64,000 nucleotides of DNA, taken from contig NW_013171827.1 of NCBI RefSeq assembly GCF_000151665.1, positions 455,066 through 519,065 on the forward strand, written 5' to 3'. A program made the translations under genes and the position numbers. Source of the DNA: Blastocystis hominis (Eukaryota > Sar > Bigyra > Opalinata > Blastocystidae). Shown here one piece after another: positions 9,896-32,032 of the stretch (positions within the stretch are counted from its first letter, which is position 1; every line of letters begins with the position of its first letter). A model generated the notes under the pieces. That model made no database searches. It saw nothing but the letters and a program-made list of their open reading frames with translations, and had not been told where the DNA came from.

Positions 9896-9938
9896 GGGGC
9901 AACGTACGTTGCCCCGGGAGGAATCTTCGATTCCTCCC
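9896..9938. repeat. Paired hairpin 1 (intergenic, upstream of the 1034-aa gene)
   Basis: The first stem is a 20-bp perfect palindrome (GGGGCAACGT arm). It abuts a second hairpin with a 10-bp stem GGGAGGAATC and a TTC loop. It lies 37 bp before the ATG at 9975. Confidence 0.88.
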
Positions 9939-9974
9939 CATTGTCTTGTTGACTAAGGTAAAGAGAGAAAGACC

Positions 9975-12900
9975 ATGCACTACTCCATGCTTATTCAAGG
10001 CTCACCTACCAACGGCTCATTTACATGGGTTAATCCGTACAAGTACAAGAATCCCTATATCACTTCCATGACTGTCCTGTTTCATCCTAATGGTTCGATG
10101 TTCAACAACGTGGACACGACGAATGTGATTACTAACAGCAATAACGAGACTGTGACAATCCCTGCTGGTTATTACACGATCAGTGAGATCATTGCCTTGC
10201 TCAATACCATGACCGATACTACATTTTCCATATCGACGAATGCCTCGTCGTTCGGTTGTATCTGGATTCAGTCTCCACACACGATTGACTTCACGGATGC
10301 ACCTGACATTCGTGAGATCCTCGGCTTCGATGGACGAACGGTCATTCTACCTGCTTCGTTCAGTGGATCGAACGTGATTGATATCACGCGAAATCGCCAA
10401 GTGATCCAGGTCTACTCGACGATCGTGCGATCATCGGACTTGAAGATTGCCAACCAGAACAACAACCTGCTCACCACGATGATCATTGACGATCCAACGG
10501 CTGACTATGTGCGAAGTGTGGAAGACGTGTGCATACCAATGATCACTCGGTTTGATCAATTGATGTTCGTGTTCCGCGATATGGATGGCAAGATGATGCG
10601 ACTGAACGGCGAATTCGAACTCCAGTTGACGATTGAGGACGTGATGGAGGAAGTGCCTTCATCGATGGGGGAAGCTTCGCTTCCCCCGGGGGTGACATCG
10701 TCACCCCCAACGATTGTCTCTGCAAACCAGTTCAGTATGATTGAAGTGTTCGGCAATACCACCAAGAAGGAAGTGAAGCTGGACAATCCTCTCTCGTTCG
10801 ACCAGTGCTACATCTCGTCTGTGTCGTTGTATACGGACTTCGTGTTGCACAACGTGCCGACTGATCAAATGGTGCTAATCAATGCTGGCGCTACGATTCA
10901 AGAGATCACGATACCACGCGGTGCATATGACATCGAAACGATCATTGCAAAGCTGAATGCAAGTGATGCCCTGTTCGAATTGGTGTATAGCGGTGAGAAT
11001 GCGTTCCACATCACGGTAGATCACTTCTACATGATTGATTTCACGAATGCACCAGAGATCCAATCGATCCTTGGTTTCGAATCGGACATCTTGGTGAAAG
11101 GAGTGGATAACCCGAAGCGCTACTACATGTCTTCCTCGTGTAATCACGTGGTTGTTACTGATGGCACTGTCTCGCACATGTTGACATTGCCTGTCGGTTA
11201 CTACACGTTCTCCGAGTTCATCGAGGCTGTCGGTGCTGAAATGGTGAAAGTGCTTCCTCTCATATCCATGACGATCGAGAATGATCATGTTCGCTTCAAT
11301 GTCCAAGCAGACGGATGGTATTTCGATCGATCCAGTGTTGACACGACGATCGATGGTTTTGGTTGGACTCCATGGTTCAAGCTGTCTCCATCTGTGCAGA
11401 ACCTGTGCATCGAACGACCAGTGGAAACTTCGTTCAACCCTGAAAGCGATTCACCACCTGATATGACGAATGATCAAGGTATTGGTGGTCATGCGTACAT
11501 AGGATCAAACACCTTCATTGCGTATGACTGGAAAATGCGTACGAATGATAATCGGTTCCTGCTAAAGCCTCTCGCGACATACACGATGCGCCTAGCTGAT
11601 GGCTCAGTACTCGATAGTGGTGAATTCTACATAACGGACGATACGTCTACCCCGATCAAGATGAATACTCTTACAACCACATGTTTTAATGAACTCAATG
11701 CTCGATATGCGAGTGCTATGGAGCTACCTCCATCTCACCAGAATGCGATTGCGTGGACGGTGAATGACAATAGAGAAAGCATGTCATGGACTGCGAAGGA
11801 CTATGCACCAGAATTGGAATTGCATATCACATCGGAAAATACAGGTGACTTGGTGTCATCGAATGGTTCTTCGATCGGACCTTGGTATTCCAAGGATAGT
11901 ATATATCACACGAGAGTGTTTATCGATACGACGAATTTTATACTTGGAATACGTGGATATGGCGAAAGACCTCTCACAATCCAACGAGGTCATTATAGCG
12001 CTGTTGATATCGTGAATATGATCGCTAATGTGATCAATAAGATATATGTAGATGCGTCTCTCGGAGGGTACTTGGTATATGTCATTGCAGATAATGGTGG
12101 TCGAGTACGAATGGGATGTCGAAATGGTACAGAACCACGATTCATATTGTTTTGTGATAATCCATGTTTCAAGATTATACCCGGACCATACGCTGAACCA
12201 GGTGGTGTGTATCTGTCTTGTTATTTCGAGTTTTATCGCAATTACTACATCAGGATGCCCGAGTTGACATCACCTTACGAGTTTGCGATGGCAAACATCG
12301 ATGGTCTGAATGTGACGAATATGATCAAAGGTAGTACGTATTCCGATCGTGCTGTGTCGATCGAATTCATACAACCGACACGTGTTACGTATGTGAGGAA
12401 TGATGAAGTTGTTGTTCCATCATTGGGTACCTTCGTTGACTGGGATCAATCTGAGTCGTACACGGCTAACACGACGATTCGCTTCCCGTACGGAATGATG
12501 ACACTGGACGATAGTGCTGCTGAGACAGTCATTACGTACACGGATGACACGGTGAACCACAAGTGGACCATACCATCACGATTGACACAGGCTGACATGA
12601 TATGGCGCTTGAACCAGTGTTTTGACTCGGCTGTACTGAACATACGATGGAAAGCTGAGTCAGATGCGTACTACATTCACGCGGACTACGTGTTCTCGTT
12701 GAGTGGTAACCTGGGAACCATCGTTCCCGCTTCAGGATCGCAATCGCATACATGGCGTATCCCTTTCGACGATGGTGTGTACTATGCCAACTATGGTCCG
12801 ATGGTTGCCGAATATCCTGTCGATATCACGAACGGTCTATCGAACATACAGCTGTATTGCAACATCGTGAAAAGCAAGACGATACCACTGCTTGCGAATG

Positions 12901-13079
12901 TCCCGATGGACAGCTTGTACAAGAATTACTTCTACAAGAATCGCATGTTGGTACCATGTTCTGAATTGCTTGATCGCATCGTGTACGAATTGAAGGACGA
13001 AAATGGTGAACCGCTATCGTTCATTGGGAACGTGTACCTGCTAATCGGATTCACCGTTTCAGGAGGAAATAATAAATGA
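9975..13079 (+). CDS. Large virion protein with about five repeats of a beta-rich domain
   Basis: 1034 residues, no enzyme motifs. A unit recurs about five times in varied form: a short helix such as GYYTISEIIALLN, then a strand-rich stretch with DFTDAPDIREILGF, then a hydrophobic closing part. Further copies start at RGAYDIETIIAKLN, VGYYTFSEFIEAV, RGHYSAVDIVNMI and RLTQADMIWRLN. The same unit occurs once in the 231-aa protein two genes downstream, so they are paralogues by internal duplication. A spike, penton or fibre-like minor virion role is inferred from repeat architecture and its place in the structural cluster. A paired hairpin (10667-10708) is inserted in frame near residue 235. The gene ends 4 bp inside the next one (ATGA overlap). 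Start: GACCATG, the only nearby ATG in frame. Confidence 0.7.
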   Translation: MHYSMLIQGSPTNGSFTWVNPYKYKNPYITSMTVLFHPNGSMFNNVDTTNVITNSNNETVTIPAGYYTISEIIALLNTMTDTTFSISTNASSFGCIWIQSPHTIDFTDAPDIREILGFDGRTVILPASFSGSNVIDITRNRQVIQVYSTIVRSSDLKIANQNNNLLTTMIIDDPTADYVRSVEDVCIPMITRFDQLMFVFRDMDGKMMRLNGEFELQLTIEDVMEEVPSSMGEASLPPGVTSSPPTIVSANQFSMIEVFGNTTKKEVKLDNPLSFDQCYISSVSLYTDFVLHNVPTDQMVLINAGATIQEITIPRGAYDIETIIAKLNASDALFELVYSGENAFHITVDHFYMIDFTNAPEIQSILGFESDILVKGVDNPKRYYMSSSCNHVVVTDGTVSHMLTLPVGYYTFSEFIEAVGAEMVKVLPLISMTIENDHVRFNVQADGWYFDRSSVDTTIDGFGWTPWFKLSPSVQNLCIERPVETSFNPESDSPPDMTNDQGIGGHAYIGSNTFIAYDWKMRTNDNRFLLKPLATYTMRLADGSVLDSGEFYITDDTSTPIKMNTLTTTCFNELNARYASAMELPPSHQNAIAWTVNDNRESMSWTAKDYAPELELHITSENTGDLVSSNGSSIGPWYSKDSIYHTRVFIDTTNFILGIRGYGERPLTIQRGHYSAVDIVNMIANVINKIYVDASLGGYLVYVIADNGGRVRMGCRNGTEPRFILFCDNPCFKIIPGPYAEPGGVYLSCYFEFYRNYYIRMPELTSPYEFAMANIDGLNVTNMIKGSTYSDRAVSIEFIQPTRVTYVRNDEVVVPSLGTFVDWDQSESYTANTTIRFPYGMMTLDDSAAETVITYTDDTVNHKWTIPSRLTQADMIWRLNQCFDSAVLNIRWKAESDAYYIHADYVFSLSGNLGTIVPASGSQSHTWRIPFDDGVYYANYGPMVAEYPVDITNGLSNIQLYCNIVKSKTIPLLANVPMDSLYKNYFYKNRMLVPCSELLDRIVYELKDENGEPLSFIGNVYLLIGFTVSGGNNK
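10667..10708. repeat. Paired hairpin 2, inserted in the 1034-aa gene
   Basis: Two hairpins with 9-bp stems (GGGGGAAGC and GGGGGTGAC), loops TTC and ATC. CGAT lies on both sides (10663-10666 and 10711-10714), so the net insertion is 48 nt and the frame is kept. It encodes a Gly/Pro/Ser-rich segment around GEASLPPGVTSSPPT. Confidence 0.9.
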
Positions 13080-13408
13080 ATCTAGTGTTCAACATTGCTC
13101 GAACGTACGAACATGAATTCACAAGTAACAATCTCATCAAAAGCGACATGGTAATCGACAGAGTGACTATGAAGGGAGAATCGCCTGGCACCTGCCTTGT
13201 CCTTGATCGAGTGAACAACATGCAAGAACGACGACAGTCTCCGTTGGTTGTATTGAACGAGGAGTTTACGGAGAATGCACACATGAACGTCGTGGTACCC
13301 AAAAGTCGCAAATGGTCATTCTCGTTGACCGATAAGACCGGTGCAACGATTGCCCTGCCAATGCCGATTACAGTGTGCATTCACTTCCATGTTCTCCAAA
13401 GTAAATGA
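13076..13408 (+). CDS. Small virion-cluster protein, related C-terminus
   Basis: 110 residues, overlapping the upstream gene by 4 bp and the downstream gene by 4 bp, so the three probably share a transcript. Its ending around FSLTDKTGATIALP followed by a hydrophobic strand matches the closing segment of the neighbours (VLTDANDRPISLN in the 231-aa protein, ELKDENGEPLSFIG in the 1034-aa one). It therefore seems to be the last half of the same domain. The start sits in a TAAATG context. Function unknown; a virion component is inferred. Confidence 0.7.
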   Translation: MNLVFNIARTYEHEFTSNNLIKSDMVIDRVTMKGESPGTCLVLDRVNNMQERRQSPLVVLNEEFTENAHMNVVVPKSRKWSFSLTDKTGATIALPMPITVCIHFHVLQSK

Positions 13409-14100
13409 GTCATAATCGTGCACTACCGGTGAGTGTGATTAACCACAATACAGTAATTCCGAAGAACAACGAACGATACCATGAAACGTTCAATACAGTG
13501 ATCATGCCTCGTGACCTTGTGTACAAGATCACTTCGATTACATGCAAGATCGATACCACTTCTCTATGGAACATTCGTGCAATGAATGTGGTGAAGGTTC
13601 AAATGCTGTCAGGGTTTGAAATGGTGTACAACGTCGGTCCTGGCTACTACTCGATTACCGAGTTATGCCGTGCGATAGCCGATTCCATCCAGGTAGACGA
13701 TGTTAACCGAGCATACTTGAACAGTGATGTGGCGACCGCTGTTGACCTTAGTGGCGCACCTGATTACACGAGTATCCTCAAGTTGGAAGGTATCGTTGAG
13801 GCAGGTATGGTAGCGAGTGAACCCTACGACATCACGAATGGCATGAGTGTGATCCGAGTCTACAGTAGTATCAATGCTCAAACATTCGGTCTGAAGAGTC
13901 CGTTGATCGATAACCTGATTCATGTATCGATGGGACTGAACAACATGATCACCTGGGACAACCTATCGATCGATGTGATTGAACAATCGAACCTGGACTA
14001 CATTGACTGGGTACTGACGGACGCGAATGACCGTCCGATCTCCTTGAATTCGAATGTGTACATCTCATTCACGATATCTTGTTACACCAAAGTAAAGTAG
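13405..14100 (+). CDS. Virion protein, single-unit paralogue of the 1034-aa repeat protein
   Basis: 231 residues holding one full copy of the repeat: GPGYYSITELCRAI, then DLSGAPDYTSILKLEG, then a C-terminal DWVLTDANDRPISLN strand pair. It is the clearest guide to the boundaries of the domain repeated in the first gene of the cluster. The start lies in CCAAAGTAAATG, overlapping the previous stop. The stop TAG is followed at once by an imperfect single hairpin (14100-14121). A penton- or minor-capsid-like role is inferred from gene order only. Confidence 0.7.
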   Translation: MSHNRALPVSVINHNTVIPKNNERYHETFNTVIMPRDLVYKITSITCKIDTTSLWNIRAMNVVKVQMLSGFEMVYNVGPGYYSITELCRAIADSIQVDDVNRAYLNSDVATAVDLSGAPDYTSILKLEGIVEAGMVASEPYDITNGMSVIRVYSSINAQTFGLKSPLIDNLIHVSMGLNNMITWDNLSIDVIEQSNLDYIDWVLTDANDRPISLNSNVYISFTISCYTKVK

Positions 14101-14121
14101 GGGAGACGGCAAAGTCGCCCC
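14100..14121. repeat. Degenerate single hairpin after the 231-aa gene
   Basis: GGGGAGAC and GTCGCCCC can pair with one A-G mismatch around a 6-nt loop. It looks like a decayed half of a paired hairpin and starts at the last base of the stop codon. Confidence 0.55.
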
Positions 14122-14142
14122 ACATTGTTCCTCCCATAGTAA

Positions 14143-16545
14143 ATGGATGAATACGTTGCTACAATTCCAATCATTCGATACAAGCCACACAAAGTGAAGT
14201 CGAGAAACATGATGGACAAGATGTTGAATCGTTATTTCGATAAAGTCGTTGAAAGTGAATTCAATCAACAGCGAATGAGGAGCGAACAATGGCGACAAAA
14301 GCGAACCTTGTTTGATTCGTACATGAATCTCTCACCCGCTGAACGTCGCCGTGTATCCGTCTCTGACATGCGTGGATATCAAATGCAGCGAATTGACGAT
14401 GAGAACGTACTGTTGTACTCATTCGAGGACAATGTGGTCTACAATGCTAAAATTGACAATAAGTTCAACAAGATCATTGTCCAGTCTGTGAATCACAAGT
14501 TGTCTGACATGGAGAAACGAGCTATCTTTGATAATCCATTTGGATATGAGCCAGTATCACCCTATCGTATCCGCTACCAGAGATCACAGGTTGGCGATGC
14601 ACAAATCGTGAATATAACTGGTGATCTTGGAACTAGCATCAACGAAATGAAGAATGCTGCTGATGCCATAACGGTTGCAGCTCAACAGATGGGAGATAGT
14701 ATCAACACAGTTACTCAACAGAATGCAGCGATTATCAATGATTTTGCTGGCTTGCGAGACGATGTGGGTGAACATGGTGATCCAAATCGAGATGTCCTGC
14801 TGTGGAATGACGATAATACTACGGCATATAAAAGAGGTGTGACACACACTACGAAACGAGGTAGTACGAAATATAGAGATTTGGTAGCTGAAGGTCGCGT
14901 TGAACGTGATCGGTGGTTGATCAAACCTGAACAACAACCTCTGAATGTGACGAATCAGATCGTACAACAGATGGATGTGACGTCCATTATCACCAAGTTG
15001 GATGAAGTGATAACTGTGATGAACAGCTTCGATATCCAGGTGAACCTTGGCAATATTTATAATGCAATAGCTTATGTAGCACAACGAATCAATTTCCTGG
15101 AAGATAAGGACAAGGGTTATCCTAAGATGTTAGAATTGTTGGAAGGTGTACAAACAAAATTGACAAATACGAACGATGGAATCAAGTCGTTGAGTGATAA
15201 GTATGCTGAAGTGGCAACAAGCATTGCAACAGGAGATGACAATTTGATCCAGAGTATTGGTGACTTGGTAAATCAACAGAAGGCTGTGATTGAGGAGAGT
15301 AATAGATATCTGCAAGGAGTCGAAGCTCGTCTGCAAGGTATTGAAAACAAACCTGATCCTCCTGCAATTGCTGATATCCAAGCATTGATTCCAACCCAAA
15401 GTGAAATGCGAATCGATGAATTGACAGAGTTCATGAAGGCGCAGTACAATGATTTCTTGAAACAATGGCTAGAGCGAAACAGCTTCATTCAGCAATTTGT
15501 ATCTGCTGAGTTGGCAAAAGCATATGATGAAATCAACAAACGGTTGGTTGAATCATTCAATACATTCACACCTTTGATTCAAAACGTGTCCAATGAATTG
15601 CAGACTACGAATCAGAATCTGATAGCTCTTGGTAATGCGGTTGCAGAAGAGGGAAAGGCAACTAGGAAACAACTATTGGATGGTACGAATGCTCTGGGCA
15701 ACCAATATGAACAAGGACAAGCTCAAACAACCAAGTTAATCAAAGATTCTACGGGTGCAATTGTTAATCAACTCACTGACAATCAGACTCAAACTAACAA
15801 CCTATTGACAAATGGATTCAATTCCATGAGTAGCCAACTCACTGACAATCAGACTCAAACTAACAACCTGTTGACAAATGTTGGTAATGCAGTTGTTGAT
15901 GGACATGCTCAAACTGGTCAGCTGATTACTACAATGAGTAATCATTTTGCTGATACTCAGCTGTCCCGGGAACAATTATATCAACAATTGTATCAGCAGA
16001 ATATGAGAGGAATCCAGAACTTAATGGATGCCATTTGGCAATCATATGAATATTTCCGGAATCAGCCACAAATTCAACCTGTGATTGTACTGGACGGTCG
16101 TCAATCTGAAAGTGTAAATGCTAGTTTCACACCTCAAGCAATCGATCAAGTGAATCGAGCTGCAGCCTTGATTGACGCGTATGAAAGTAAAGATTCTAAT
16201 GACACCAAGGAAAGTTGGGAAAGCGATGATACTCGCGAAGATTTCATTGCTTTCTCAAGTTTGCTTGCTCGCAATTTCAACAATCCTGTTTTCGCTCAAT
16301 TTGCTAATGACCTTGGATTCTCACGTCTCTTCAGGGCTTATCGTGATCGAAATGAAGACCCCGAACTGATGAGTTTCTTCATACGAGTAGCTAATAGTAA
16401 GGATCTAACTCCTGATTATTTGGACTACATGAAAAACAAGATCAAACGGTTTGCTGTCAATGTAGATCAACAATTCGAGCAATATCTGCAAAATACGTAC
16501 AACACGATCAAGGATATGTTCATTACACAGGGTTTCAATGGCTAA
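14143..16545 (+). CDS. Long coiled-coil structural protein
   Basis: 800 residues. The basic N-terminal part (about residues 1-150) is followed by a long Gln/Asn/Thr-rich helical region with heptad character. A 22-residue unit around NQLTDNQTQTNNLLTNG is repeated in tandem with a 66-nt period (15769 and 15835), a sign of recent growth by duplication. The C-terminal 150 residues are again more globular. The start ATG sits in AGTAAATGG. No enzyme motif is seen. Such coiled-coil proteins are common beside Polinton capsid genes, but I cannot name a family; a fibre shaft, scaffold or core protein are all possible. Confidence 0.65.
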   Translation: MDEYVATIPIIRYKPHKVKSRNMMDKMLNRYFDKVVESEFNQQRMRSEQWRQKRTLFDSYMNLSPAERRRVSVSDMRGYQMQRIDDENVLLYSFEDNVVYNAKIDNKFNKIIVQSVNHKLSDMEKRAIFDNPFGYEPVSPYRIRYQRSQVGDAQIVNITGDLGTSINEMKNAADAITVAAQQMGDSINTVTQQNAAIINDFAGLRDDVGEHGDPNRDVLLWNDDNTTAYKRGVTHTTKRGSTKYRDLVAEGRVERDRWLIKPEQQPLNVTNQIVQQMDVTSIITKLDEVITVMNSFDIQVNLGNIYNAIAYVAQRINFLEDKDKGYPKMLELLEGVQTKLTNTNDGIKSLSDKYAEVATSIATGDDNLIQSIGDLVNQQKAVIEESNRYLQGVEARLQGIENKPDPPAIADIQALIPTQSEMRIDELTEFMKAQYNDFLKQWLERNSFIQQFVSAELAKAYDEINKRLVESFNTFTPLIQNVSNELQTTNQNLIALGNAVAEEGKATRKQLLDGTNALGNQYEQGQAQTTKLIKDSTGAIVNQLTDNQTQTNNLLTNGFNSMSSQLTDNQTQTNNLLTNVGNAVVDGHAQTGQLITTMSNHFADTQLSREQLYQQLYQQNMRGIQNLMDAIWQSYEYFRNQPQIQPVIVLDGRQSESVNASFTPQAIDQVNRAAALIDAYESKDSNDTKESWESDDTREDFIAFSSLLARNFNNPVFAQFANDLGFSRLFRAYRDRNEDPELMSFFIRVANSKDLTPDYLDYMKNKIKRFAVNVDQQFEQYLQNTYNTIKDMFITQGFNG

Positions 16546-16583
16546 TGAATATATCTTTGATCTTCTTTTCACTTTGTAGGCAT

Positions 16584-16622
16584 GGGGCACTTCGTGCCCC
16601 CGGGGAAATCTACGATTTCCCC
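16584..16622. repeat. Paired hairpin 3 (intergenic, before the pVI-like gene)
   Basis: A 7-bp stem GGGGCAC with TTC loop is followed after one C by a 9-bp stem GGGGAAATC with TAC loop. CAT lies on both sides. It ends 8 bp before the ATG at 16631. Confidence 0.85.
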
Positions 16623-16630
16623 ATACATAA

Positions 16631-17629: not shown

Positions 17630-17670
17630 GGGGCAGCGTCGCTGCCCCGGGAGGAAGCAGAGCTTCCTCC
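17630..17670. repeat. Paired hairpin 4, directly after a stop codon
   Basis: An 8-bp stem GGGGCAGC with GTC loop, then a 9-bp stem GGAGGAAGC with AGA loop. It begins on the base after the TGA of the pVI-like gene, so it would lie in that transcript's 3' end and in the leader of the protease gene. Confidence 0.88.
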
Positions 17671-17700
17671 GTACTAAGTAAACTCTACAAGCATGGATAC

Positions 17701-18090: not shown

Positions 18091-18129
18091 GGGGAAGGCG
18101 AAGCTTCCCCGGGGGCACGTTGTGTCCCC
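18091..18129. repeat. Paired hairpin 5, directly after the protease stop codon
   Basis: The first hairpin pairs GGGGAAG with CTTCCCC around a 6-nt loop. The second pairs GGGGGCAC with GTGTCCCC (one G-T pair) around GTT. It begins on the base after TGA. Confidence 0.82.
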
Positions 18130-18142
18130 TACTGTAACTATT

Positions 18143-20566: not shown

Positions 20567-20586
20567 TTATTAGGGAGGAACTTCGT

Positions 20587-22647: not shown

Positions 22648-22655
22648 TAGTATAA

Positions 22656-23948: not shown

Positions 23949-23996
23949 GGGACAAAGTGAAATAAGGGCGACTTGGAAACCATAGCTTCCAGTCTT

Positions 23997-24407: not shown

Positions 24408-24442
24408 TTGTATTTCTATTTATGTTTACATTATTTAAATCT
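24408..24442 (-). promoter_or_regulatory. Weaker copy of the early-type promoter box
   Basis: On the minus strand GATTTAAATAATGTAAACA is followed by TAAATAGAAATACAA and the ATG of the 136-aa gene. It keeps the TTTAAA and ACATAAATA blocks of the two strong copies. Confidence 0.5.
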
Positions 24443-24455
24443 ATTTAGGCATCCC

Positions 24456-24647
24456 TCATTTCACTTTAATCTCTGTCGGACTGATCGATATGTCACTTCC
24501 ACTGTCGTCATCGGATCCATTCTTCTCATTGTACACGCACAAGCAGTGACATCTGTCCTTGCATTTCGAGTCCACCACCAGTTTGTGGTTCTTCCTTCCA
24601 CTCATCCATTTCCATGCACTTTTCAGCCATTGAATAAAGCGGTTCAT
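24456..24647 (-). CDS. Small 63-aa protein divergent from integrase
   Basis: A Trp-rich basic amphipathic N-terminus (MNRFIQWLKSAWKWMSGRK), a Cys cluster (CKDRCHCLC) and an acidic tail. No family recognised; a membrane-active or small zinc-binding protein are both possible. Its ATG and that of the integrase gene are only 2 bp apart on opposite strands, so each promoter must lie inside the other gene. The opposite strand is also open, which lowers confidence. Confidence 0.45.
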   Translation of the reverse strand: MNRFIQWLKSAWKWMSGRKNHKLVVDSKCKDRCHCLCVYNEKNGSDDDSGSDISISPTEIKVK

Positions 24648-24649
24648 TT

Positions 24650-25714
24650 ATGAATGAAATCAAGGAACTAAGGAAACCAGCCAAGCGAAAAGGTGCAACT
24701 CGAGTGATCATCAGTGGATTCAAGAGAAACATATACTTCATCGATCTTATCGATTTCTCTTCCAAACAAGACAAATGGATTCAGGAAGTGTTGGGCAGAC
24801 AGAAGAGTACAGGATTCCACAAGAATCGTGGATACAAGTATGTCCTTGTATGTATTGATGGATATTCGAAATACCTGATGGCTCGGCGACTGAAAAGCAA
24901 GAGTGCCACAGAAGTCACGCATGCGATGAAGGATATCATTCAAACATACGGACCACCAAAGCATATTTGCTCTGATCAAGGCACCGAGTTCACCAGTGCC
25001 ATCTTTCGTACCAACATCTTGGACAAGTATGACATCACCATGTATCACATGGATTCAGCGAATAAGGCAGTACTAGCCGAACGAGCAATTCGAGATATCA
25101 AGGAAGACATCATGGTTCCATTCAATCAATCGAAAGGTGTGTGGTTCGACTTGATCGATGGTGCCGTTCGTAGACACAATGCAAGGAAGAACAGAGACAC
25201 CGGATATGCACCCACTGACATTTGGAACAACAACATCTTGTACACGGAGAAGACAGAACCATCCAACATGACAGCGAAGGACACAACACCTCAATTCGAT
25301 GTGGGTGATTATGTTCGAGTGACACGAAGACCTCGCGTTCTGGAAAAGCGATCATTGACGAGTAAATGGTCTCAGGACTTGTATGAAGTTGTTGACATTG
25401 ACGATCGATTCATGCCATTGATGTACGAAGTGAAGAATATGGAAAGCGGTAGCAAGCAGAAGTGCTATCATTGGGAACTCCTGGCGAGCAAATGCAAACC
25501 ACAGCCAGCACCACCAGTCACGCGATCCAAGAGTCGAAAGGAACCCAATGCATTGCGAGATGCAGCAAGGTCACATCGACCCATTACGAGGAGTCAAAAT
25601 GGGACGACGAAGTGGGGCGACTTTGTCGCCCCGGGAAGCCTTCGCCTTCCCACGAAGTCGTCCCGGCGGAACGAAGTTCCGCCACAGAAGAAAGGTGTTC
25701 GAAAACGATCGTGA
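24650..25714 (+). CDS. Retroviral-type (rve, D,D35E) integrase
   Basis: 354 residues. The RNase-H-fold core has the first Asp in FIDLIDFS (about residue 32), the second in CSDQGTEF (109) and Glu in VLAERAIRDIKE (144), giving the exact 35-residue D-E spacing. The C-terminal part (FDVGDYVRVTRR...YHWELLA) is the SH3- or chromodomain-like DNA/chromatin-binding module usual in Polinton integrases. The N-terminal zinc-binding HHCC domain is not evident. It inserts element DNA into the host genome. The last 40 residues come from composite hairpin B and include APGSLRLPTKSSR, also at the ATPase C-terminus. Its 3' end overlaps the end of the opposite-strand gene by about 130 bp. Confidence 0.92.
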   Translation: MNEIKELRKPAKRKGATRVIISGFKRNIYFIDLIDFSSKQDKWIQEVLGRQKSTGFHKNRGYKYVLVCIDGYSKYLMARRLKSKSATEVTHAMKDIIQTYGPPKHICSDQGTEFTSAIFRTNILDKYDITMYHMDSANKAVLAERAIRDIKEDIMVPFNQSKGVWFDLIDGAVRRHNARKNRDTGYAPTDIWNNNILYTEKTEPSNMTAKDTTPQFDVGDYVRVTRRPRVLEKRSLTSKWSQDLYEVVDIDDRFMPLMYEVKNMESGSKQKCYHWELLASKCKPQPAPPVTRSKSRKEPNALRDAARSHRPITRSQNGTTKWGDFVAPGSLRLPTKSSRRNEVPPQKKGVRKRS

Positions 25715-26285
25715 TGCTCTTCACACCACCTAGAAGCATGAGAGGAAGATTCGAATACGTACGAAGGACAGGAGAATTTCCTCCAATATTCACAACAGCA
25801 TAACCAGTATGAGATACAAGACTATTCAATGTATCGATGTACGGTCTGTCTAGGATAGGCGTGTTGTCAAACGTGACTAGCACTCGATAACCCTTTTCAA
25901 CCACCGATTCGATTGAGTCGCAATCGTTGAACACGTCGTAGGGGGAGGCATGGCCTCCCCCGGGGGAAGCAGAGCTTCCCCCATTGTCGGGAAGGTAGGT
26001 TATGACAGTCGTGGTTATCAGGTACGATCCGGACGGCATAGGCGGCATACCATCACCACCCCATTCGCCATTGAATGATTCGGTAGCATCTGGCGTGTAC
26101 TCGAAGACAAATGCTTCATTCGCTTTCACGATACAAGCCGCACTCCCCCACGAGTATTGAGGAACACCATCCACTGTCTCTCGAATTAGCACATGATGAC
26201 CGTCCTTCTCTGGCATGTTGATGAGCATGTTGTCGAGCTTCTTGAACGTGTAGTTGTTTCCATTGCTGCTGAAAATGTACGACAT
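25584..26285 (-). CDS. Unrecognised 233-aa beta-rich protein
   Basis: Strand-rich, with no family recognised. N-terminal MSYIFSSNGNNYTFKKLDN and central WGSAACIVKANEAFVFEY look like a small virion or attachment protein, but this is only impression. Paired hairpin 9 is inserted in frame (Gly/Ser/Pro-rich SSASPGGGHASPYD). The frame also runs through composite hairpin B at its end (AGTTSWEGEGFPGRQSRP), so both strands of that hairpin are coding. The start is in AAAGTAAATG, the late-type context. Confidence 0.6.
   Translation of the reverse strand: MSYIFSSNGNNYTFKKLDNMLINMPEKDGHHVLIRETVDGVPQYSWGSAACIVKANEAFVFEYTPDATESFNGEWGGDGMPPMPSGSYLITTTVITYLPDNGGSSASPGGGHASPYDVFNDCDSIESVVEKGYRVLVTFDNTPILDRPYIDTLNSLVSHTGYAVVNIGGNSPVLRTYSNLPLMLLGGVKSITIVFEHLSSVAELRSAGTTSWEGEGFPGRQSRPTSSSHFDSS
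25601..25683. repeat. Composite hairpin B in the integrase tail
   Basis: Outer arms GGGACGAC (25601-25608) and GTCGTCCC (25657-25664) enclose a GGGGCGAC hairpin with TTT loop (25614-25632) and a GGGAAG hairpin with 7-nt loop (25633-25651). A GGCGGAAC hairpin with GAA loop (25665-25683) follows. It is the same design as copy A, but the enclosed cassette is inverted relative to the third hairpin. Confidence 0.88.
25941..25982. repeat. Paired hairpin 9, inserted in the 233-aa gene
   Basis: 9-bp stems GGGGGAGGC (ATG loop) and GGGGGAAGC (AGA loop). GTCG occurs on both sides (25935-25938 and 25986-25989), so the net insertion would be 51 nt. The direct repeats are a few bases away from the stems. 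Confidence 0.87.
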
Positions 26286-26293
26286 TTACTTTT

Positions 26294-26866
26294 TTATTTA
26301 CTTTGGGGGAGACGATGTCTCCCCCGGGGCAACAGCGTTGCCCCCGTTTGTCTTTGATATGCACGAACGTACACACCCTTCAGACACGCACCATCATCGA
26401 TGAACAGATCGGACAACTCGGGAGGCACTTCATCATCCACAACTTTGAAGACCACGCGAACATAGTAGTTGGAGAAGAAGTAAACAGCACGATTCTCTGT
26501 TTCCACAGACACCACATAGGGGGACAGCGAAGCTGCCCCGGGGGAGGCTATGCCTCCCCCTACATAAGGCTGTGTGTCATACGTCCTACAGAAGACATTC
26601 AGAGGCACACCGAGCAGACCATTGGATTTCAATTGAGGCAATAGATACTCCCATTCATCCTCGGTAAACAAAGGTGGACGAGTTTCATCCAATGTCATCT
26701 CGATGCAATCATAGTCGTGCAATATTAAACCACAGTTCACATTTGCTTGCGGAGTGCAAACACTGAAGCCGAATAGACGCTCGGAATTGATCGGATACTT
26801 GGTATGGATGATGATGTCGGCGAGTTCGATATTCTCGTCCTCACAAGTGGTACCAGGGAAGACCAT
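26294..26866 (-). CDS. Unrecognised protein with two hairpin-derived segments
   Basis: 191 residues from the ATG at 26866; the frame is open further upstream but would overlap the divergent 141-aa gene. Acidic, with no recognised domain (TTCEDENIELADIIIHTKYP; later SDLFIDDGACLKGVYVRAYQ). Paired hairpin 11 interrupts it in frame (GGGIASPGAASLSPY), and paired hairpin 10 encodes its last residues (GATLLPRGRHRLPQ). It shares an AT-rich 80-bp promoter region with the opposite gene. Confidence 0.55.
   Translation of the reverse strand: MVFPGTTCEDENIELADIIIHTKYPINSERLFGFSVCTPQANVNCGLILHDYDCIEMTLDETRPPLFTEDEWEYLLPQLKSNGLLGVPLNVFCRTYDTQPYVGGGIASPGAASLSPYVVSVETENRAVYFFSNYYVRVVFKVVDDEVPPELSDLFIDDGACLKGVYVRAYQRQTGATLLPRGRHRLPQSK
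26305..26344. repeat. Paired hairpin 10
   Basis: A 9-bp stem GGGGGAGAC with GAT loop and an 8-bp stem GGGGCAAC with AGC loop. It encodes the C-terminus of the 191-aa protein and lies just upstream of the 233-aa gene on the minus strand. Confidence 0.88.
26519..26560. repeat. Paired hairpin 11, inserted in the 191-aa gene
   Basis: First hairpin GGGGGACAGC with GAA loop (one bulged base), second GGGGGAGGC with TAT loop. ACATA occurs on both sides (26514-26518 and 26562-26566), so the net insertion is 48 nt. Confidence 0.9.
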
Positions 26867-26947
26867 GTGTTGTTTTCTGTTTTCTTGTACTTCATTTAGG
26901 GAAGCATCTAGGGTTAAAAGAGAAAATATAAATATATAAATATATAA

Positions 26948-27373
26948 ATGAATAGACCTACTCACACTTTGAATCCCAATACAGGACGAGAAATCCAAAT
27001 CAACGGAGTTCGCTTCTGGAACCTTCTCAAGCGTGGATACAAGTACGACGAGAAATTGAATCGCTTGTACGACAAACCATTACCACCGGATACGACGAAG
27101 TACGTTCCCAAGTCGAGAATGCTTTCTCCCAGCAATCGCTCCATGATTATTGGTGGCACAGCATACTACGAGTTACTCCATGACAACTATAGACCACGAG
27201 GTGGCAAATGGGTGAAGATGACGAAAGAAGAAGCCAAAGCATACGATAATGATCCAGACATCAACAAGATATTCGCAAACGACGATTCAGACGATTCGTC
27301 GTCCGAGTCTGAGTATGTCGACATCGATGAATTCGAATATGACGAAGATGGCCATGCGATTTTCCCATTCTAG
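26948..27373 (+). CDS. 141-aa protein with an NPxTGR-type motif shared with the polymerase N-terminus
   Basis: It starts TLNPNTGREIQINGVRFWNLL, very close to the polymerase's TINPETGRKIKVGSQIWKRL about 500 bp downstream. Similar NPxTGR stretches occur in small adaptor modules of large DNA viruses (2-cysteine adaptor type), but the two cysteines are absent here. It ends in an acidic Asp/Ser/Glu-rich tail (DDSDDSSSESEYVDIDEF). It sits directly upstream of the polymerase with the same orientation. A terminal-protein or polymerase-partner role is conceivable but unproven. Confidence 0.62.
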   Translation: MNRPTHTLNPNTGREIQINGVRFWNLLKRGYKYDEKLNRLYDKPLPPDTTKYVPKSRMLSPSNRSMIIGGTAYYELLHDNYRPRGGKWVKMTKEEAKAYDNDPDINKIFANDDSDDSSSESEYVDIDEFEYDEDGHAIFPF

Positions 27374-27451
27374 GCTGGAAATTCCATAACTATTTTCCAA
27401 GTCACACCATTTTCACTTTGGTCACTTAAAGAATTTGTCGCCTATATATAA

Positions 27452-30400
27452 ATGGATTCTTTTCGCGACGAATATACTATTAACCCTGAGACTGGACGAA
27501 AGATTAAGGTTGGGAGTCAAATCTGGAAACGATTAGCAGCCAAGTACTATATGATCGATGGGAAGTTCACCGATCAGACCATTCCTGATTCACGAGCGTA
27601 TCTGTCGAACAAGGTATTCGGGCTGAAACAAGTAACACCTAACAGACGAGTGACACATAGGCGCGTCAGTGATCCCAAAGGAGAGCATAAGTATCTGATT
27701 GTTGGAAGCAAGACATGGAACGAGCGATTTCTTGAGTATGAATGGAATGGACATGAATTCGGTGACAAGCGAGGTCGTCCGTTGCCTGAGTTCATGAACA
27801 CGGTGGAGAAGAGACGTGAAGCACGTCGCAATAAGGCATTCGCTCGGTTCGATCGCAAAGTGGCCGAAGGGCGCTTGTCGGACGTGATCAACTCGTCACT
27901 CGGGTATGCACTCACGTACTATCACACCGTAGAAGGAGACATGTACAAGGAATGGATGAATGAGAAGCGCACCAAGAAGGACTTCCGCCTCAAGAACGAT
28001 GATGACAAGAGACTGTGGGTTCGACTACCGGGTGAAAAGGGCGATGAGGAAGTGGAACCGATCAACCTCGTATTCGATGAAAGCGAGGAGTTCAATGAGA
28101 TCGTGAAGAAGTTTATCATGACTGGTATGCGTGAGTACAACCAGTGTTTCGTCACCATCATGGCATACAATCTCATGTGGACACATGACGGAGATCCCAA
28201 GATTCTCAACCTCACCGATGGTCGATTGGGACACCTCCGCATCGTTCGCCGAGATCGTATCGATGAGTGGATCAAGGACTATCTGAAGTGGTACCGAAAT
28301 GGTGTAGAGGAACAGGAGACAGAGGGCAGTGGGTTCGTGTACCATGGGTGGATCGGCTTCCATGTTGAGATGTTCCCACTACGCACATTCGTGGGATACA
28401 AGCACCACACACCTTATATCATTGGACAGACTGCGGTCAACCCGAATATCAATGACAACCGGTGCCTGCAACGGTGTCTCATCCTGGCAAGTGAAGGCGG
28501 GCACAAGATTATTGCAAATCGCAAGATGGGCGATGCAAGTGTGTACAACAAGTGGTGGAAGCAACCCGACAAGAACAAGGTATTCGGAGTGACCATTCAC
28601 GAGGTGGAGGAGGCGATGAACATTCGCGACAATGCACCCTTCAACGCGAGTGAAGAGAATTTTGCGAGATTGGAAGAACTGTTGAAAGTCTCTCTCAACG
28701 TATTCGAGGTCACACTCTTACCTGGATACGATGACAACTCCGAGGATAAATACGATCTATTCACATGTTATCAAGTGTACAAGCCGAAAAGGAAGAGTGG
28801 ATGTGGGGAGCAACGAAGTTGCTCCCGGGGCAACGAAGTTGCCCCATGTGTGTCGCTTTGCATCGTGAATGATACACGGGAGGGGGAAGAAATTCCCAAG
28901 CATTTCTTGTACATCAAGGACTTGAGCGATTTCAAACATCGCATCTTTCGTCAGAGTGATGTGAAGAATAGACATACAACGAGAAACGTGAAGTGCAGGT
29001 TCTGTAACGACTTCTTCGGATCTCACAAAGCCGTTCATGCTCACGAAGTACAAGCACATCGAGAACTCGTCAATGAGAGTGAGGAGTACGAGTTGTCGAA
29101 CGAGGAGACTCGGTTGCGATTCACCAACCAGCGATACGAAATGCCAGCACCGGTCGTCGTGTACGCTGACTTCGAGTCAGCCATTGATGACAAGAACAGA
29201 CATAAGCCAATCATGTTATCCTGTCTAGCCGTGTCTCGTATCCCTGCCATCCAGACTCAACTGAGAGTCTTCCATGCACCACACGAGAGCGAAGAAGAGC
29301 TTCGTCCTTTCATGGACTATCTCGTGCAATTGCACGAGAGTGTGAAAACATATCTATTCGATGAATTACCCCTCGAGAACTCTCCGAGCATCGAGAAGGA
29401 CTTTCGTGCAACAACCGTGTGTCCCTTCTGTCGCAAGAAACTGGAGGACGACAAGGTACGTCATCACGCACATGTGGCAGGTGAATACACCACAGGAAAG
29501 GGAGAAGTACGCCACTTCAAAGCCGGACAGTACATCTGCACCTGTTGCACCAAGTGTAACCTACAACTCTCATTCAACAAGAAGAACTATCGTCTGCCAG
29601 TTTACTTCCACAATGGATCGCACTACGACTTCACATTCATCATGAAGCTCATCGCGACGATGCCTGGTGGGAATCTCGAAGTCATTCCAACCACTGAAGA
29701 CAAGGAGATGCAGATCGAGTACAATGGCATTCAATTCAAGGACTCGTTGAAGCTCATCAGTAGTCCACTGCGTTCCATCGTTGCACAGACACTTGGAGGC
29801 AACTTGGACCTCTATGTGCACACCAAACAACAACTACGCAAGTACTGTGAGTCTCGAGGCAAGCAATGGGATGATAAATACATCGATCTGTTGACACGGA
29901 AAGAACCCATGTTCTACAGTCTCATCAAGTCGTACGAGTCATTGAACAATACCGTCATTCCTTCTCGCGAGCAATGCATTGATGATATGAAGGGTGAGAT
30001 GATGTCACAAGACGAATATGATCACATGGTGAAGCTGTGGAAGACCTTCGGTATCAAGACATGGGGTGAATACTACGAATTGTACAATGTACTCGATGTG
30101 ACTCTCATGGCTGATGCATTCGAACACTTCCGAAACACCACACTGAATGCATTCGGTGTTGATCCCATGCATTACATCACAGCACCACAAATGGCATATT
30201 CGCTATTCTTGAAGGTGACAATGGATGGCGATCATGGTGAGAGTAGCTTCATGACCCTCGCAAGGAAGTGGGCTCAGTACATCATGCGCATCAACGCGAA
30301 TGAGGGACTTGAGGAGAAACAACTGGTGAAAGTGTTCTTGAATCGCATGGGTGAGTTCTATGAGAGCAAGGGCATTCGATTGATGGAGACAAATGATATC

Positions 30401-31918
30401 GATGACTTCATGCGATTGTTGAAGAACCTGCGAGGAGGAATCACACAGATCGTGAAACGACATGCCAAGGTTGATATTGCCAACAAGGAGCAAGCAACGT
30501 CGTCCCAAGGCATCTACTACCTCGACGCCAACAACCTGTATGGTGGAGCCATGCATCGAATGATGCCTTATGAGTTGGTGGGTGTACCTGAGCGACGAGA
30601 AGTGATGGAGAAGATCAATCGTGACCCGAATGGGTGGGTACAATCACTCAATACGTTCGGCAAGTATGGATTCTTCGTCGAGTGTGACATCGAGGCACCA
30701 GTGGAGTTACACGACAAGTTCAATGATCTGCCATTCTTCCCCGTACAGAAGGCGGGCATGTACTCCGATGGAATCAAGAAGTACGCTGAGAAGAACGACA
30801 TCGTGGACAAAGTGAAAGAGGTGAATACACCGAAGCTCATCTGCGATCTTGTGCCTCGTCGAAAGTATCTCGTGCATTACTCACTGTTGCAACTGGGCAT
30901 TCAACAGGGATATCGAGTTACACACATTCACCATCTCATTCGATTCAAGCAGGCACCGTTCATCTTCGAATATGTGAACATGTTGAGTGAGAAACGAGCC
31001 AAGTCCAAGACCACTGTGGAGAAGAACCTGTACAAGCTGTTGGCAAACTCGACCTATGGCAAATTCGTGGAGACTGGGTTGAAACGGATGAAAGTGAAGT
31101 TTGCTAACACATGGAATGAACGTGAAGCCATCATTCAGAAGCATGGGTACGATATGATCGCTGGGACTACCATGTATTCCGAGAATCTCATCGGCATCAA
31201 GTTGAATACACCGGTACGTAGGGTGGAGAAGCCATTCTTCATCGGGTTCGCCATTCTCGACATGTCCAAGCACATCATCTACGATTTCTACTACAATGTG
31301 CTCAAGACGACATTCGATAACGTGGAGCTGTTGGGACAGGACACGGATTCGCTCATCGTGCAGTTGCACGATCGCGCTAACATCGTTCACAAGATGTGTG
31401 ACATGTACAAATCGTTCGACTTCTCGGAATTGGATAACACGAGCTACTTCTATGGAGAACTCGTGAAGTACTATGAGCATGAAGTGGACAAGAGCAAGTT
31501 CCCTTCATTGGACTCGTTCCTCAATTTCAACAAGAAGTTGCCTGGTCCTATCTTCAAGGACGAGCACAACGGACATCGCATCACGGAGTTCGTGGGACTT
31601 AGACCGAAGATGTACTGCTTGGTTGATGAGAAGCATGTGATACACAACGCAGCAAAGGGAGTTCCTCGCAACGTGGTGATCGATGGTGAGAGGATGAGCG
31701 TGAAGAACATCGACTTGTACAAGCGTGTCCTCGAGGCAGAGAAAAAGAAAGATGCAGTGATCGAAGGCAGCTTCAAACGCATCAACAACCAGGCCTTCGA
31801 TATCAGCACGAAGGAGCAGACCAAGACCCTTATGACGTGCACGGACAACAAGCGATGGATCTTGGACGACAACATACACACACTTGCGTTTGGACATTAC
31901 CGATTGAAGGACATGTAA
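27452..31918 (+). CDS. polB: Protein-primed family B DNA polymerase
   Basis: 1488 residues. The 3'-5' exonuclease has Exo I YADFESAID (about 570), Exo II HNGSHYDFTF (about 723) and Exo III YNVLDVTLMAD (about 878). The polymerase domain has motif A YYLDANNLYG (about 1023), motif B KLLANSTYGKF (about 1195) and motif C GQDTDSLIV (about 1296). Ahead of these lie an N-terminal NPETGRKIKVG module, a NDNRCLQRCLIL segment typical of Polinton polymerases, a C2H2-like finger (CRFCNDFF...HAHEVQAH, about 515) and a Cys/His cluster (CPFCRKK...HHAHVAGEY). The large N-terminus may include the terminal protein used for priming; that is inference. Paired hairpin 12 is inserted in frame near residue 455, in a linker. 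The ATG is in ATATAAATGG. Confidence 0.96.
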   Translation: MDSFRDEYTINPETGRKIKVGSQIWKRLAAKYYMIDGKFTDQTIPDSRAYLSNKVFGLKQVTPNRRVTHRRVSDPKGEHKYLIVGSKTWNERFLEYEWNGHEFGDKRGRPLPEFMNTVEKRREARRNKAFARFDRKVAEGRLSDVINSSLGYALTYYHTVEGDMYKEWMNEKRTKKDFRLKNDDDKRLWVRLPGEKGDEEVEPINLVFDESEEFNEIVKKFIMTGMREYNQCFVTIMAYNLMWTHDGDPKILNLTDGRLGHLRIVRRDRIDEWIKDYLKWYRNGVEEQETEGSGFVYHGWIGFHVEMFPLRTFVGYKHHTPYIIGQTAVNPNINDNRCLQRCLILASEGGHKIIANRKMGDASVYNKWWKQPDKNKVFGVTIHEVEEAMNIRDNAPFNASEENFARLEELLKVSLNVFEVTLLPGYDDNSEDKYDLFTCYQVYKPKRKSGCGEQRSCSRGNEVAPCVSLCIVNDTREGEEIPKHFLYIKDLSDFKHRIFRQSDVKNRHTTRNVKCRFCNDFFGSHKAVHAHEVQAHRELVNESEEYELSNEETRLRFTNQRYEMPAPVVVYADFESAIDDKNRHKPIMLSCLAVSRIPAIQTQLRVFHAPHESEEELRPFMDYLVQLHESVKTYLFDELPLENSPSIEKDFRATTVCPFCRKKLEDDKVRHHAHVAGEYTTGKGEVRHFKAGQYICTCCTKCNLQLSFNKKNYRLPVYFHNGSHYDFTFIMKLIATMPGGNLEVIPTTEDKEMQIEYNGIQFKDSLKLISSPLRSIVAQTLGGNLDLYVHTKQQLRKYCESRGKQWDDKYIDLLTRKEPMFYSLIKSYESLNNTVIPSREQCIDDMKGEMMSQDEYDHMVKLWKTFGIKTWGEYYELYNVLDVTLMADAFEHFRNTTLNAFGVDPMHYITAPQMAYSLFLKVTMDGDHGESSFMTLARKWAQYIMRINANEGLEEKQLVKVFLNRMGEFYESKGIRLMETNDIDDFMRLLKNLRGGITQIVKRHAKVDIANKEQATSSQGIYYLDANNLYGGAMHRMMPYELVGVPERREVMEKINRDPNGWVQSLNTFGKYGFFVECDIEAPVELHDKFNDLPFFPVQKAGMYSDGIKKYAEKNDIVDKVKEVNTPKLICDLVPRRKYLVHYSLLQLGIQQGYRVTHIHHLIRFKQAPFIFEYVNMLSEKRAKSKTTVEKNLYKLLANSTYGKFVETGLKRMKVKFANTWNEREAIIQKHGYDMIAGTTMYSENLIGIKLNTPVRRVEKPFFIGFAILDMSKHIIYDFYYNVLKTTFDNVELLGQDTDSLIVQLHDRANIVHKMCDMYKSFDFSELDNTSYFYGELVKYYEHEVDKSKFPSLDSFLNFNKKLPGPIFKDEHNGHRITEFVGLRPKMYCLVDEKHVIHNAAKGVPRNVVIDGERMSVKNIDLYKRVLEAEKKKDAVIEGSFKRINNQAFDISTKEQTKTLMTCTDNKRWILDDNIHTLAFGHYRLKDM
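28806..28845. repeat. Paired hairpin 12, inserted in the DNA polymerase gene
   Basis: A 9-bp stem GGGAGCAAC with GAA loop and an 8-bp stem GGGGCAAC with GAA loop. ATGT occurs on both sides (28801-28804 and 28846-28849), giving a net insertion of 45 nt that keeps the polymerase frame and encodes a segment around EQRSCSRGNEVAP. Confidence 0.9.
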
Positions 31919-31994
31919 AGGAGAAGTTTTTTACTTTGTTTTCTTTATCAAACAGTGTATAAAGGGCAGACAATTACCACATTGGCAGACAATG

Positions 31995-32032
31995 GGGGAA
32001 GCGAAGCTTCCCCGGGGGAGCAAAGCTCCCCC
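31995..32032. repeat. Paired hairpin 13 (downstream of polymerase)
   Basis: 8-bp stems GGGGAAGC (GAA loop) and GGGGGAGC (AAA loop; arm GCTCCCCC). AAT flanks both sides. It lies 75 bp past the polymerase stop, before the right terminal repeat. The stretch 31919-32176 contains no gene. Confidence 0.88.

What the first reader, a model, noticed from the sequence alone, without database searches (positions are those of the whole stretch)
9896..32032. Family of at least 16 abutting paired hairpins confined to one Polinton
About 13 paired hairpins, two composite versions and one degenerate single share a layout of G-run stem, loop (mostly 3 nt), C-run, immediately followed by a second such hairpin. 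Arms differ between copies (AAGC, CAAC, TGAC, CGAC, CAGC, GAGCC), yet each arm has its own exact complement, so pairing is conserved while sequence is not. None is seen in 41 kb of flanking host DNA. Double-hairpin elements are known from some fungal mitochondrial genomes; I know of none described in Polintons. They could be mobile, or serve in replication, packaging or RNA 3'-end formation.
Basis: partly seen in the sequence, partly recalled or inferred. Interest (0 to 1): 0.95.

Follow-up and report, generated by a model that had tools for sequence, protein, structure and literature searches.

The report
Mobile double hairpins inside Polinton transposons
Virus-like Polinton transposons in what appears to be a Blastocystis (gut protist) genome carry hundreds of DNA pieces about 40 letters long that fold into two adjoining hairpins and have jumped into new sites, often in reading frame inside genes and into each other's loops, a kind of selfish DNA known so far mainly from mitochondria.

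Summary
The window's Polinton (about 9470-32290; the genome has 31 long PolB matches, and contig lengths point to Blastocystis hominis) carries 15 intact hairpin pairs, two of them nested in two further, split pairs, plus one degenerate single. Perfect pairs: 11 in the Polinton, 0 in 41 kb of host DNA, 0 in 60 shuffles. A strict pattern matches 389 times genome-wide, 0 for its mirror; the 100 places listed all lie within 20 kb of Polinton genes and 94 pair fully at the unspecified stem positions (13.8 expected). They are mobile insertions: at some 30 sites other copies have an empty allele, and 28 of 34 comparisons (29 sites) show an exact target duplication of 3 bp or more (3% by chance). At 17 of 17 coding sites the net gain is 42, 45 or 48 nt, though two single alleles are off frame. 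Elements sit in loops of resident ones (at least 8 target hairpins). Loops are mostly GNA or AAA triloops and often differ between copies by exact reverse complement. One insertion is shared with a polymerase 85-86% identical from elsewhere. They resemble mitochondrial double-hairpin elements, yeast GC clusters and Rickettsia palindromic elements. The moving enzyme is unknown; movement during Polinton replication is inferred.

The parts
9470..32290 (.). Polinton that hosts the elements; ends AGTAGTAGGG...CCCTACTACT, degenerate terminal inverted repeats (limits approximate)
   Evidence: inverted repeats I7/I8, rve integrase and PolB, ends compared with other copies
9896..9938 (.). double hairpin, intergenic; in L184, L185 and L189 its first hairpin holds a nested element
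10667..10708 (.). double hairpin inside ORF 9975-13079, 48-nt in-frame insertion (ATCGAT on the left, AACGAT on the right)
   Evidence: 12 filled and 28 empty by match length among 40 listed matches; 20 of these aligned, 9 filled and 11 empty
14100..14121 (.). degenerate single hairpin at the stop codon of ORF 13405-14100
16584..16622 (.). double hairpin between ORFs; first hairpin differs between copies while the second is kept in 7 of 8 listed
17630..17670 (.). double hairpin after the stop codon of ORF 16631-17629 but in an open frame in phase with the next ORF; loops flip between copies, nested element in L174, L176, L177, L179
18091..18129 (.). double hairpin with mismatches after a stop codon; hairpin 1 arms differ between copies
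19177..19259 (.). composite: outer double hairpin (19177-19188 + 19229-19240, then 19241-19259) with inner double hairpin 19190-19228 in its loop; CTTCG at 19184-19188 and 19229-19233
20587..20624 (.). double hairpin beside a half hairpin (20573-20585)
22605..22647 (.). double hairpin between divergent ORFs
24164..24201 (.). double hairpin in ORF 23997-24407, empty in L033, ACTTC duplicated, 45 nt net
25601..25683 (.). composite in the overlap of the integrase ORF and ORF 25584-26285: inner pair 25614-25651 in the loop of the outer, ACGAAG at 25607-25612 and 25652-25657, outer second hairpin 25665-25683
25941..25982 (.). double hairpin in ORF 25584-26285, 48 nt net, empty allele called in 16 loci
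26305..26344 (.). double hairpin in ORF 26294-26866, 45 nt net; nested element in L022 and L026; shortened, off-frame allele in L010
26521..26560 (.). double hairpin in ORF 26294-26866, 48 nt net, ACATA duplicated
28806..28845 (.). double hairpin in the PolB gene, in frame; present in L001-L010 (nested in L007-L009), absent in L011-L030
31995..32032 (.). double hairpin after PolB, 42 nt net; same arms also at two other sites in L012 and L023
24650..25714 (+). retroviral-type (rve) integrase of the Polinton, one candidate for moving the elements
   Evidence: PF00665, E 3.4e-13
27452..31918 (+). PolB of the Polinton
   Evidence: PF03175, E 1.3e-16

Best explanation
The hairpin pairs are a family of very short non-autonomous mobile elements (Polinton double-hairpin elements) that live in the Polintons of this Blastocystis-like genome. 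SHOWN by comparison: many are discrete insertions at sites that are empty in other copies; insertion mostly duplicates about 3-5 bp of target, at times more; the same pair of arms occurs at several sites with different duplications; elements lie inserted in the loops of resident ones; nearly all insertions in genes keep the reading frame; the listed copies lie in or near Polintons. INFERRED: they move as DNA while the Polinton replicates with its own PolB, when displaced single strands or supercoiling let the hairpins fold; a nuclease or integrase makes a staggered cut, preferably at a hairpin loop or a loop-like ACNNNG target, and filling the cut gives a duplication about the size of a loop. 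Folding and template switching within hairpins would explain loops turned to their reverse complement and arms that stay complementary as their sequence changes. As Polintons are mostly coding, units that add a multiple of three bases survive best in genes, which shapes the pool.
For: Filled and empty alleles at one site. Exact duplication of at least 3 bp in 28 of 34 comparisons and at least 4 bp in 23 of 34; simulated insertions without duplication give 3.0% and 0.65%. Arms GGGAAGCC + GGGGCGAC (GGGGCGAT in one) at four places with duplications CAAAGT, ACTTTG, ACGAAG and CTTCG (the last two places are related composites). Nested elements in at least 8 target hairpins, elements being 3.1% of the Polinton. 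17 of 17 coding sites have net gains that are multiples of three. Loops strand-folded: GAA, GTA, GCA 54 of 100 and AAA 22 of 100. Among 44 hairpins of 22 sites seen in two or more loci, 16 vary in the loop and 12 of these include an exact reverse complement, 10 of them on the same arms. 100 of 100 and 50 of 50 listed places lie within 20 and 12.1 kb of Polinton gene matches. Four elements fold as single-stranded DNA into two hairpins at -18 to -20.6 kcal/mol.
Against: No transposition was watched and no enzyme identified. Duplications vary (0 to 8 bp exact, median 4), while four Polinton copies have exactly 6. Net length is a multiple of three also at 10 of 13 sites first called noncoding (8 of 11 without two that may be coding), which frame selection alone does not explain. 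Two alleles in genes are off frame: a 1-nt insertion in L039 and a shortened element in L010 (43 nt net, open frame 118 instead of 261). One nested case (26321) shows no clear duplication. Three sites at or near stop codons are filled in most loci seen. RNA-level movement is not excluded. Absence from host DNA rests on listed places and limited host sequence.
Confidence: 0.8

Rival explanations
1. The Polinton integrase (rve) inserts the double hairpins in trans, as it inserts the Polinton, so they are MITE-like satellites of the integrase.
For: Polinton insertions show exact 6-bp duplications in 4 of 11 copies; the cleanest element duplications are also about 6 bp (ACGAAG, CAAAGT, ACTTTG); the integrase gene is in the Polinton; the terminal repeats share the 11-mer GGGGCGACTTT with a common hairpin half.
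Against: Most exact element duplications are 3-5 bp; the sixth base adds mismatches at about the rate of bases 8-11 (0.62 against 0.62-0.74 per event), though the seventh adds fewer (0.38); element ends do not resemble AGTAGTAGGG; listed elements spare host DNA, into which the Polinton itself is inserted.
Confidence: 0.25
2. The elements spread through RNA copies, as suggested for mitochondrial relatives, with a reverse transcriptase making DNA at nicks.
For: RNA-mediated spread was proposed for yeast GC42 (PMC4478555, Discussion read) and for Allomyces elements (PMC2800124, passages); elements within genes are presumably transcribed.
Against: Pfam names no reverse transcriptase among the 16 Polinton ORFs scanned, but most of these have no convincing Pfam match at all; 54 of 100 loops are of the GNA type, described as extraordinarily stable in DNA (PMC4686876, passages).
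Confidence: 0.12
3. The hairpins are cis-acting Polinton signals (RNA 3'-end formation, replication, packaging).
For: Several sit at or right after stop codons (14100, 17630, 18091), and the sites 16584, 17630 and 18091 are filled in most loci seen there; hairpins mark transcript ends in some giant viruses and virophages (recalled).
Against: Other sites are empty in most copies (28 of 40 at 10667, 20 of 30 at 28806), many lie inside genes, others nest in one another, and one lies between divergent genes (22605). A few copies may have been put to use later.
Confidence: 0.06
4. The palindromes arise in place by template switching and do not move.
For: Loop flips and arms changing together are what template switching makes; a hairpin half also occurs in the terminal repeats.
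Against: It does not predict duplications, clean empty sites, or the same pair of arms at several sites.
Confidence: 0.04

Closest known systems
Mitochondrial double-hairpin elements (DHEs) of Allomyces, other chytrids and fission yeasts
   Same: two hairpins in one short GC-rich dispersed unit, potentially mobile (PMC10085805, passages; PMC2800124, passages)
   Different: ours sit in nuclear Polintons, many in frame in protein genes, with target duplications, whereas Allomyces elements are reported to lack flanking duplications; fission-yeast DHEs are intergenic or in rRNA genes
Yeast mitochondrial GC clusters (GC42)
   Same: 42-nt palindromic GC-rich units with putative target duplication, gain and loss between strains, merging and shuffling (PMC4478555; abstract, Results section 13 and Discussion read); another, 48-nt GC cluster lies inside the var (rps3) gene
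   Different: target nucleotides there are AG; GC clusters are mostly intergenic; ours merge by insertion at hairpin loops and lie in a virus-like transposon
Rickettsia palindromic elements
   Same: palindromic selfish DNA, nearly half of it inserted in genes as in-frame fusions (PMC10969869, a review, passages)
   Different: about 150 bp with a conserved peptide; ours are about 40 bp, paired hairpins, with varied peptides
Repetitive hairpin-forming elements of sponge mitochondria
   Same: hairpins often in tandem as double hairpins, two types differing by a few complementary substitutions (PMC2800124, passages)
   Different: found in intergenic regions and rRNA genes; the authors say the mode of movement cannot be judged for sponges
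IS elements that insert in REP palindromes (IS1397 type; recalled)
   Same: insertion into the loop of a repeated palindrome
   Different: they encode a transposase; here the target and the inserted element belong to the same family

Membership tests
Double-hairpin elements (DHE) | two adjoining hairpins in one short unit | tested here: met
Double-hairpin elements (DHE) | several dispersed copies, presence/absence between relatives | tested here: met
   (between copies within one genome)
Double-hairpin elements (DHE) | found in mitochondrial DNA | tested here: not met
   the listed places of two patterns (100 and 50, some shared) lie near Polinton genes; so same layout, no claim of common descent
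Double-hairpin elements (DHE) | no flanking duplication (reported for Allomyces) | tested here: not met
   against the passage
Double-hairpin elements (DHE) | sequence homology to fungal DHEs | not tested
   no fungal DHE sequence was fetched
MITE / non-autonomous DNA transposon | target-site duplication of constant length | tested here: inconclusive
   duplication in most events but 0-8 bp exact, median 4
MITE / non-autonomous DNA transposon | terminal inverted repeats shared with an autonomous transposon | tested here: inconclusive
   element ends GGG...CCC differ from Polinton ends AGTAGTAGGG by inspection; other transposons of the genome were not searched
Rickettsia palindromic elements | in-frame insertion in genes | tested here: met
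   17 of 17 coding sites, with two off-frame single alleles
Rickettsia palindromic elements | about 150 bp with conserved encoded peptide | tested here: not met
   core 36-45 nt, varied peptides
Known structured RNA | match to an Rfam family | tested here: not met
   0 matches in 9400-32400 at gathering scores

The most novel reading that the evidence does not exclude
A class of protein-free parasites of a virus-like transposon: about 40-nt DNA dumbbells with exceptionally stable GNA triloops that multiply only while Polintons replicate, choose hairpin loops (including their own) as targets so that the duplication is loop-sized, renew their arms by template switching so that pairing is inherited while sequence is not, and are held to frame-neutral lengths by living in coding DNA.
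Probability: 0.35. Interest if true: 0.88.

Novelty: new variant of a known kind. Interest (0 to 1): 0.74.

Why it matters
How mitochondrial double-hairpin elements and GC clusters move is still open in the papers seen. Here one genome holds 31 long PolB matches in Polintons with hundreds of hairpin matches, empty alleles, nested events and duplications, so models (integrase, loop-directed nuclease, RNA copying, template switching) can be tested against each other. It also takes double-hairpin elements out of mitochondria into nuclear virus-like DNA and shows in-frame insertions even in the polymerase and integrase genes. If loop-sized duplications and self-targeting hold, it is a mode of DNA insertion in which structure, not sequence, is inherited and recognised.

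Tried and rejected
IMG/VR and the GTDB contigs gave no relative of the PolB by the tool's test. Among 48 relatives of ORF 9975-13079 none hit. The scan is not fully sensitive: it finds an element in 5 of the 6 window ORFs tried, and misses the composite in ORF 19139-20566.

A constant 6-bp duplication was considered and dropped as sole model. Of 38 event rows four with more than 4 background mismatches were dropped (L019, L032, L010, L021 at 27384; the L010 row has 43 nt net, the others 45, 51 and 48). Among the 34 kept, site 16583 counts three times and 26520, 27372 and 28645 twice, so they are 29 sites; two look-alike sites (31975, 9905) were merged with others by the script. The net-length lists were put together by hand, one allele per site; at 16583 one allele (L176) has 47. 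One search shows that 17629 and 17660, listed there as noncoding, lie in an open frame in phase with the next ORF. Against one third, 10 of 13 noncoding gives P = 0.0016, 8 of 11 about 0.009 (hand arithmetic); coding against noncoding, Fisher P = 0.07. So the multiples of three outside genes stay unexplained. The binomial test of nesting used 7 target hairpins of 39 sites and 3% of sequence, before the eighth (in L031) was seen; both counts are approximate. In one search site 18090 appears as two groups. Loci overlap in part (L001 lies in the window; L031 and L033 overlap L002 and L003), so 101 counts calls, not distinct copies. Places are the listed ones only (100 of 389; 50 of 56), and the Polinton anchors come, with a few from 49 and 50, and for one search also.

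Papers: listings for Blastocystis with Maverick or Polinton, Polinton with hairpin and palindromic, double hairpin element with target site duplication, and a five-term search with virophage showed no report of this. The founding Allomyces DHE paper was not seen; it is cited through others.
Full report
WHAT IS THERE. The window lies in an 18.7-Mb assembly of 40 contigs. The Polinton runs from about 9470 to 32290, with an rve integrase, a family B DNA polymerase and a KilA-N protein and degenerate terminal inverted repeats. The genome holds 31 long PolB matches besides 9 short N-terminal pieces. Matches to Polinton pieces fall into 76 clusters, a rough count of copies and fragments.

THE ELEMENTS. 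Each is two hairpins with no or one base between them, stems mostly of 7-10 bp that mostly begin with GG, and loops of 3 (sometimes 4) nt closed by C-G in 133 of 136 hairpins. In the window I count 15 intact pairs, two outer pairs split by insertion, and one degenerate single, 711 b or 3.1% of the Polinton. They exceed chance: 11 perfect pairs against 0 in 60 shuffles and 0 in 41,180 b of host DNA. Genome-wide a strict pattern gives 193+196 matches against 0+0. Of the first 100 listed, 94 are complementary at all three unspecified stem positions (13.8 expected, maximum 29), 93 lie within 10 kb of a Polinton gene match and 100 within 20 kb; the 10-kb surroundings make up 11.6% of six of the contigs concerned. 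A second pattern for one hairpin gives 56 places genome-wide against 0; of 50 listed, 49 lie within 10 kb and all within 12.1 kb.

THEY ARE INSERTIONS. At 10667-10708 the match length alone splits the 40 listed copies into 12 filled and 28 empty; 20 of these were aligned, 9 filled and 11 empty, and in 10 of the 11 the sequence reads straight across the site (L051 is diverged there). In PolB the element at 28806 is in L001-L010 (L001 is the window itself) and absent from L011-L030; five of the latter have a short hairpin-like stretch there. Over the window and 73 loci (313,562 b, partly overlapping) I elements in about 42 site groups, 34 of them with an empty allele elsewhere, a few of these on poor flanks. 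Comparing filled with empty alleles, the longest exact duplication is 3 bp or more in 28 of 34 comparisons (29 sites) and 4 or more in 23 of 34; simulated insertion without duplication gives 3.0% and 0.65%. Averaged, mismatches stay low to the fourth base and rise near the plateau rate at the sixth, with a dip at the seventh. The Polinton itself shows exact 6-bp duplications in 4 of 11 copies; the other seven match over 0-2 bp, and two flank pairs look exchanged between copies.

THE SAME ELEMENT AT SEVERAL SITES, AND NESTING. Arms GGGAAGCC and GGGGCGAC (GGGGCGAT at one place) occur together at four places: with CAAAGT duplicated (L031, window 23958), ACTTTG (L031, near window 24164), ACGAAG (window 25613) and CTTCG (window 19189); the last two are related composites, so three or four independent insertions. 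Nested insertions lie in or beside hairpin loops: in PolB of L007-L009 with ACGAAG duplicated in L008 and L009, in L041 with AGCTT, in the two window composites, in L031 and at 9905, 17660, 18105 and 26321; at 26321 no clear duplication is seen. One composite hairpin occurs at two unrelated sites, 9905 and 27372, which suggests that a hairpin with its passenger can be copied as a unit.

CODING CONSTRAINT. The net gain is 42, 45 or 48 nt at 17 of 17 coding sites and at 10 of 13 sites first called noncoding; the exceptions are 46, 46 and 50 (assembled by hand). Two of the 13 may be coding; without them it is 8 of 11. Frame selection explains the coding figure; the other is unexplained, though a pool bred in coding DNA would tend that way. 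Against the rule, L039 has a 1-nt insertion in an arm and L010 a shortened element (43 nt net, open frame 118 instead of 261).

STRUCTURE AND CHANGE. Four elements folded as single-stranded DNA give exactly the two hairpins at -18 to -20.6 kcal/mol, none of 200 shuffles each doing as well. Strand-folded loops are GAA 24, AAA 22, GTA 18 and GCA 12 of 100. GNA loops closed by G-C pairs are described as extraordinarily stable and nuclease-resistant in DNA (PMC4686876, passages). Of 44 hairpins at 22 sites seen in at least two loci, 16 vary in the loop and 12 of those include an exact reverse complement, 10 on the same arms, which suggests inversion or template switching. At 16583 and at the site of L019 and L021 in PolB one hairpin is replaced by a different but self-complementary one while its neighbour stays. 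Old copies do decay: 3 of 10 at the PolB site have arm mismatches (L005, L006, L007), and at 27372 many copies keep only a remnant.

AGE AND SPREAD. P0001, a PolB from another source, 86.0% and 85.0% identical to loci L017 and L022, carries at the same place a 15-residue insert nearly identical to theirs, which a double hairpin can encode. Among 116 PolB-like proteins 2 pass this test (one of them from this genome), against 0 of 348 shuffled and 0 of 116 reversed; among 48 relatives of ORF 9975-13079 none does. So at least one insertion predates the split from P0001 or crossed between the two lines, but the elements are not general among the relatives seen.

MECHANISM. Shown: mobility, duplication, nesting, frame, confinement among listed places. 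Inferred: movement as DNA during Polinton replication, with staggered cutting at loop-like targets. Many non-nested targets read ACNNNG or close to it (ACTTTG, ACAAAG, ACATTG, ACGAAA), which is also the loop region of common hairpins; I noted this by eye and did not test it. The Polinton integrase stays a candidate (0.25). On checking the calls I raised the cis-signal rival from 0.04 to 0.06, because three sites at or near stop codons are filled in most loci seen.

COMPARISON. The family works like mitochondrial double-hairpin elements and yeast GC clusters and, in genes, like Rickettsia palindromic elements. It is not filed as a member of any: location and duplication differ from the Allomyces type, and length and peptide from the Rickettsia type. 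The paper searches named in Tried and rejected listed no report of it.

Noticed in passing
18365-18388 and 18429-18450: Two loopless perfect palindromes with a GGAATTCC core inside the KilA-N ORF; in L031 the second is only partly palindromic. A different kind from the double hairpins.
   Followed up: partly
9495, 9536, 14111, 32186: The Polinton terminal repeats (and the single at 14100) carry the 11-mer GGGGCGACTTT or its complement, identical to loop plus arm of one of the commonest hairpins: possible birthplace of that hairpin.
   Followed up: partly
L015, L020, L027 (with L196, L199): The 5' flank of one Polinton equals the 3' flank of another (ATCCAT, TACAAT): exchange between Polinton copies, or chimeric assembly.
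   Followed up: no
39004-39681 (-) and 41357-42034 (+): Two identical 225-aa ORFs in inverted orientation in host DNA.
   Followed up: no
L023-L030 PolB: In one group of PolB copies the gene matches in two pieces (to residue 59 and from residue 63 on) about 100 nt apart, as if an intron or insertion lay between them.
   Followed up: no
window 27372 in L011, L014-L016, L018, L020, L022, L024, L026-L030: Shared remnant GGGATGCCTTCGG followed by a short unrelated stretch: a decayed element.
   Followed up: partly
9905 in L184, L185, L189 and 27372 in L007: The same passenger element in the same hairpin at two unrelated sites: a composite hairpin copied as a unit, or two insertions at one target.
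   Followed up: partly
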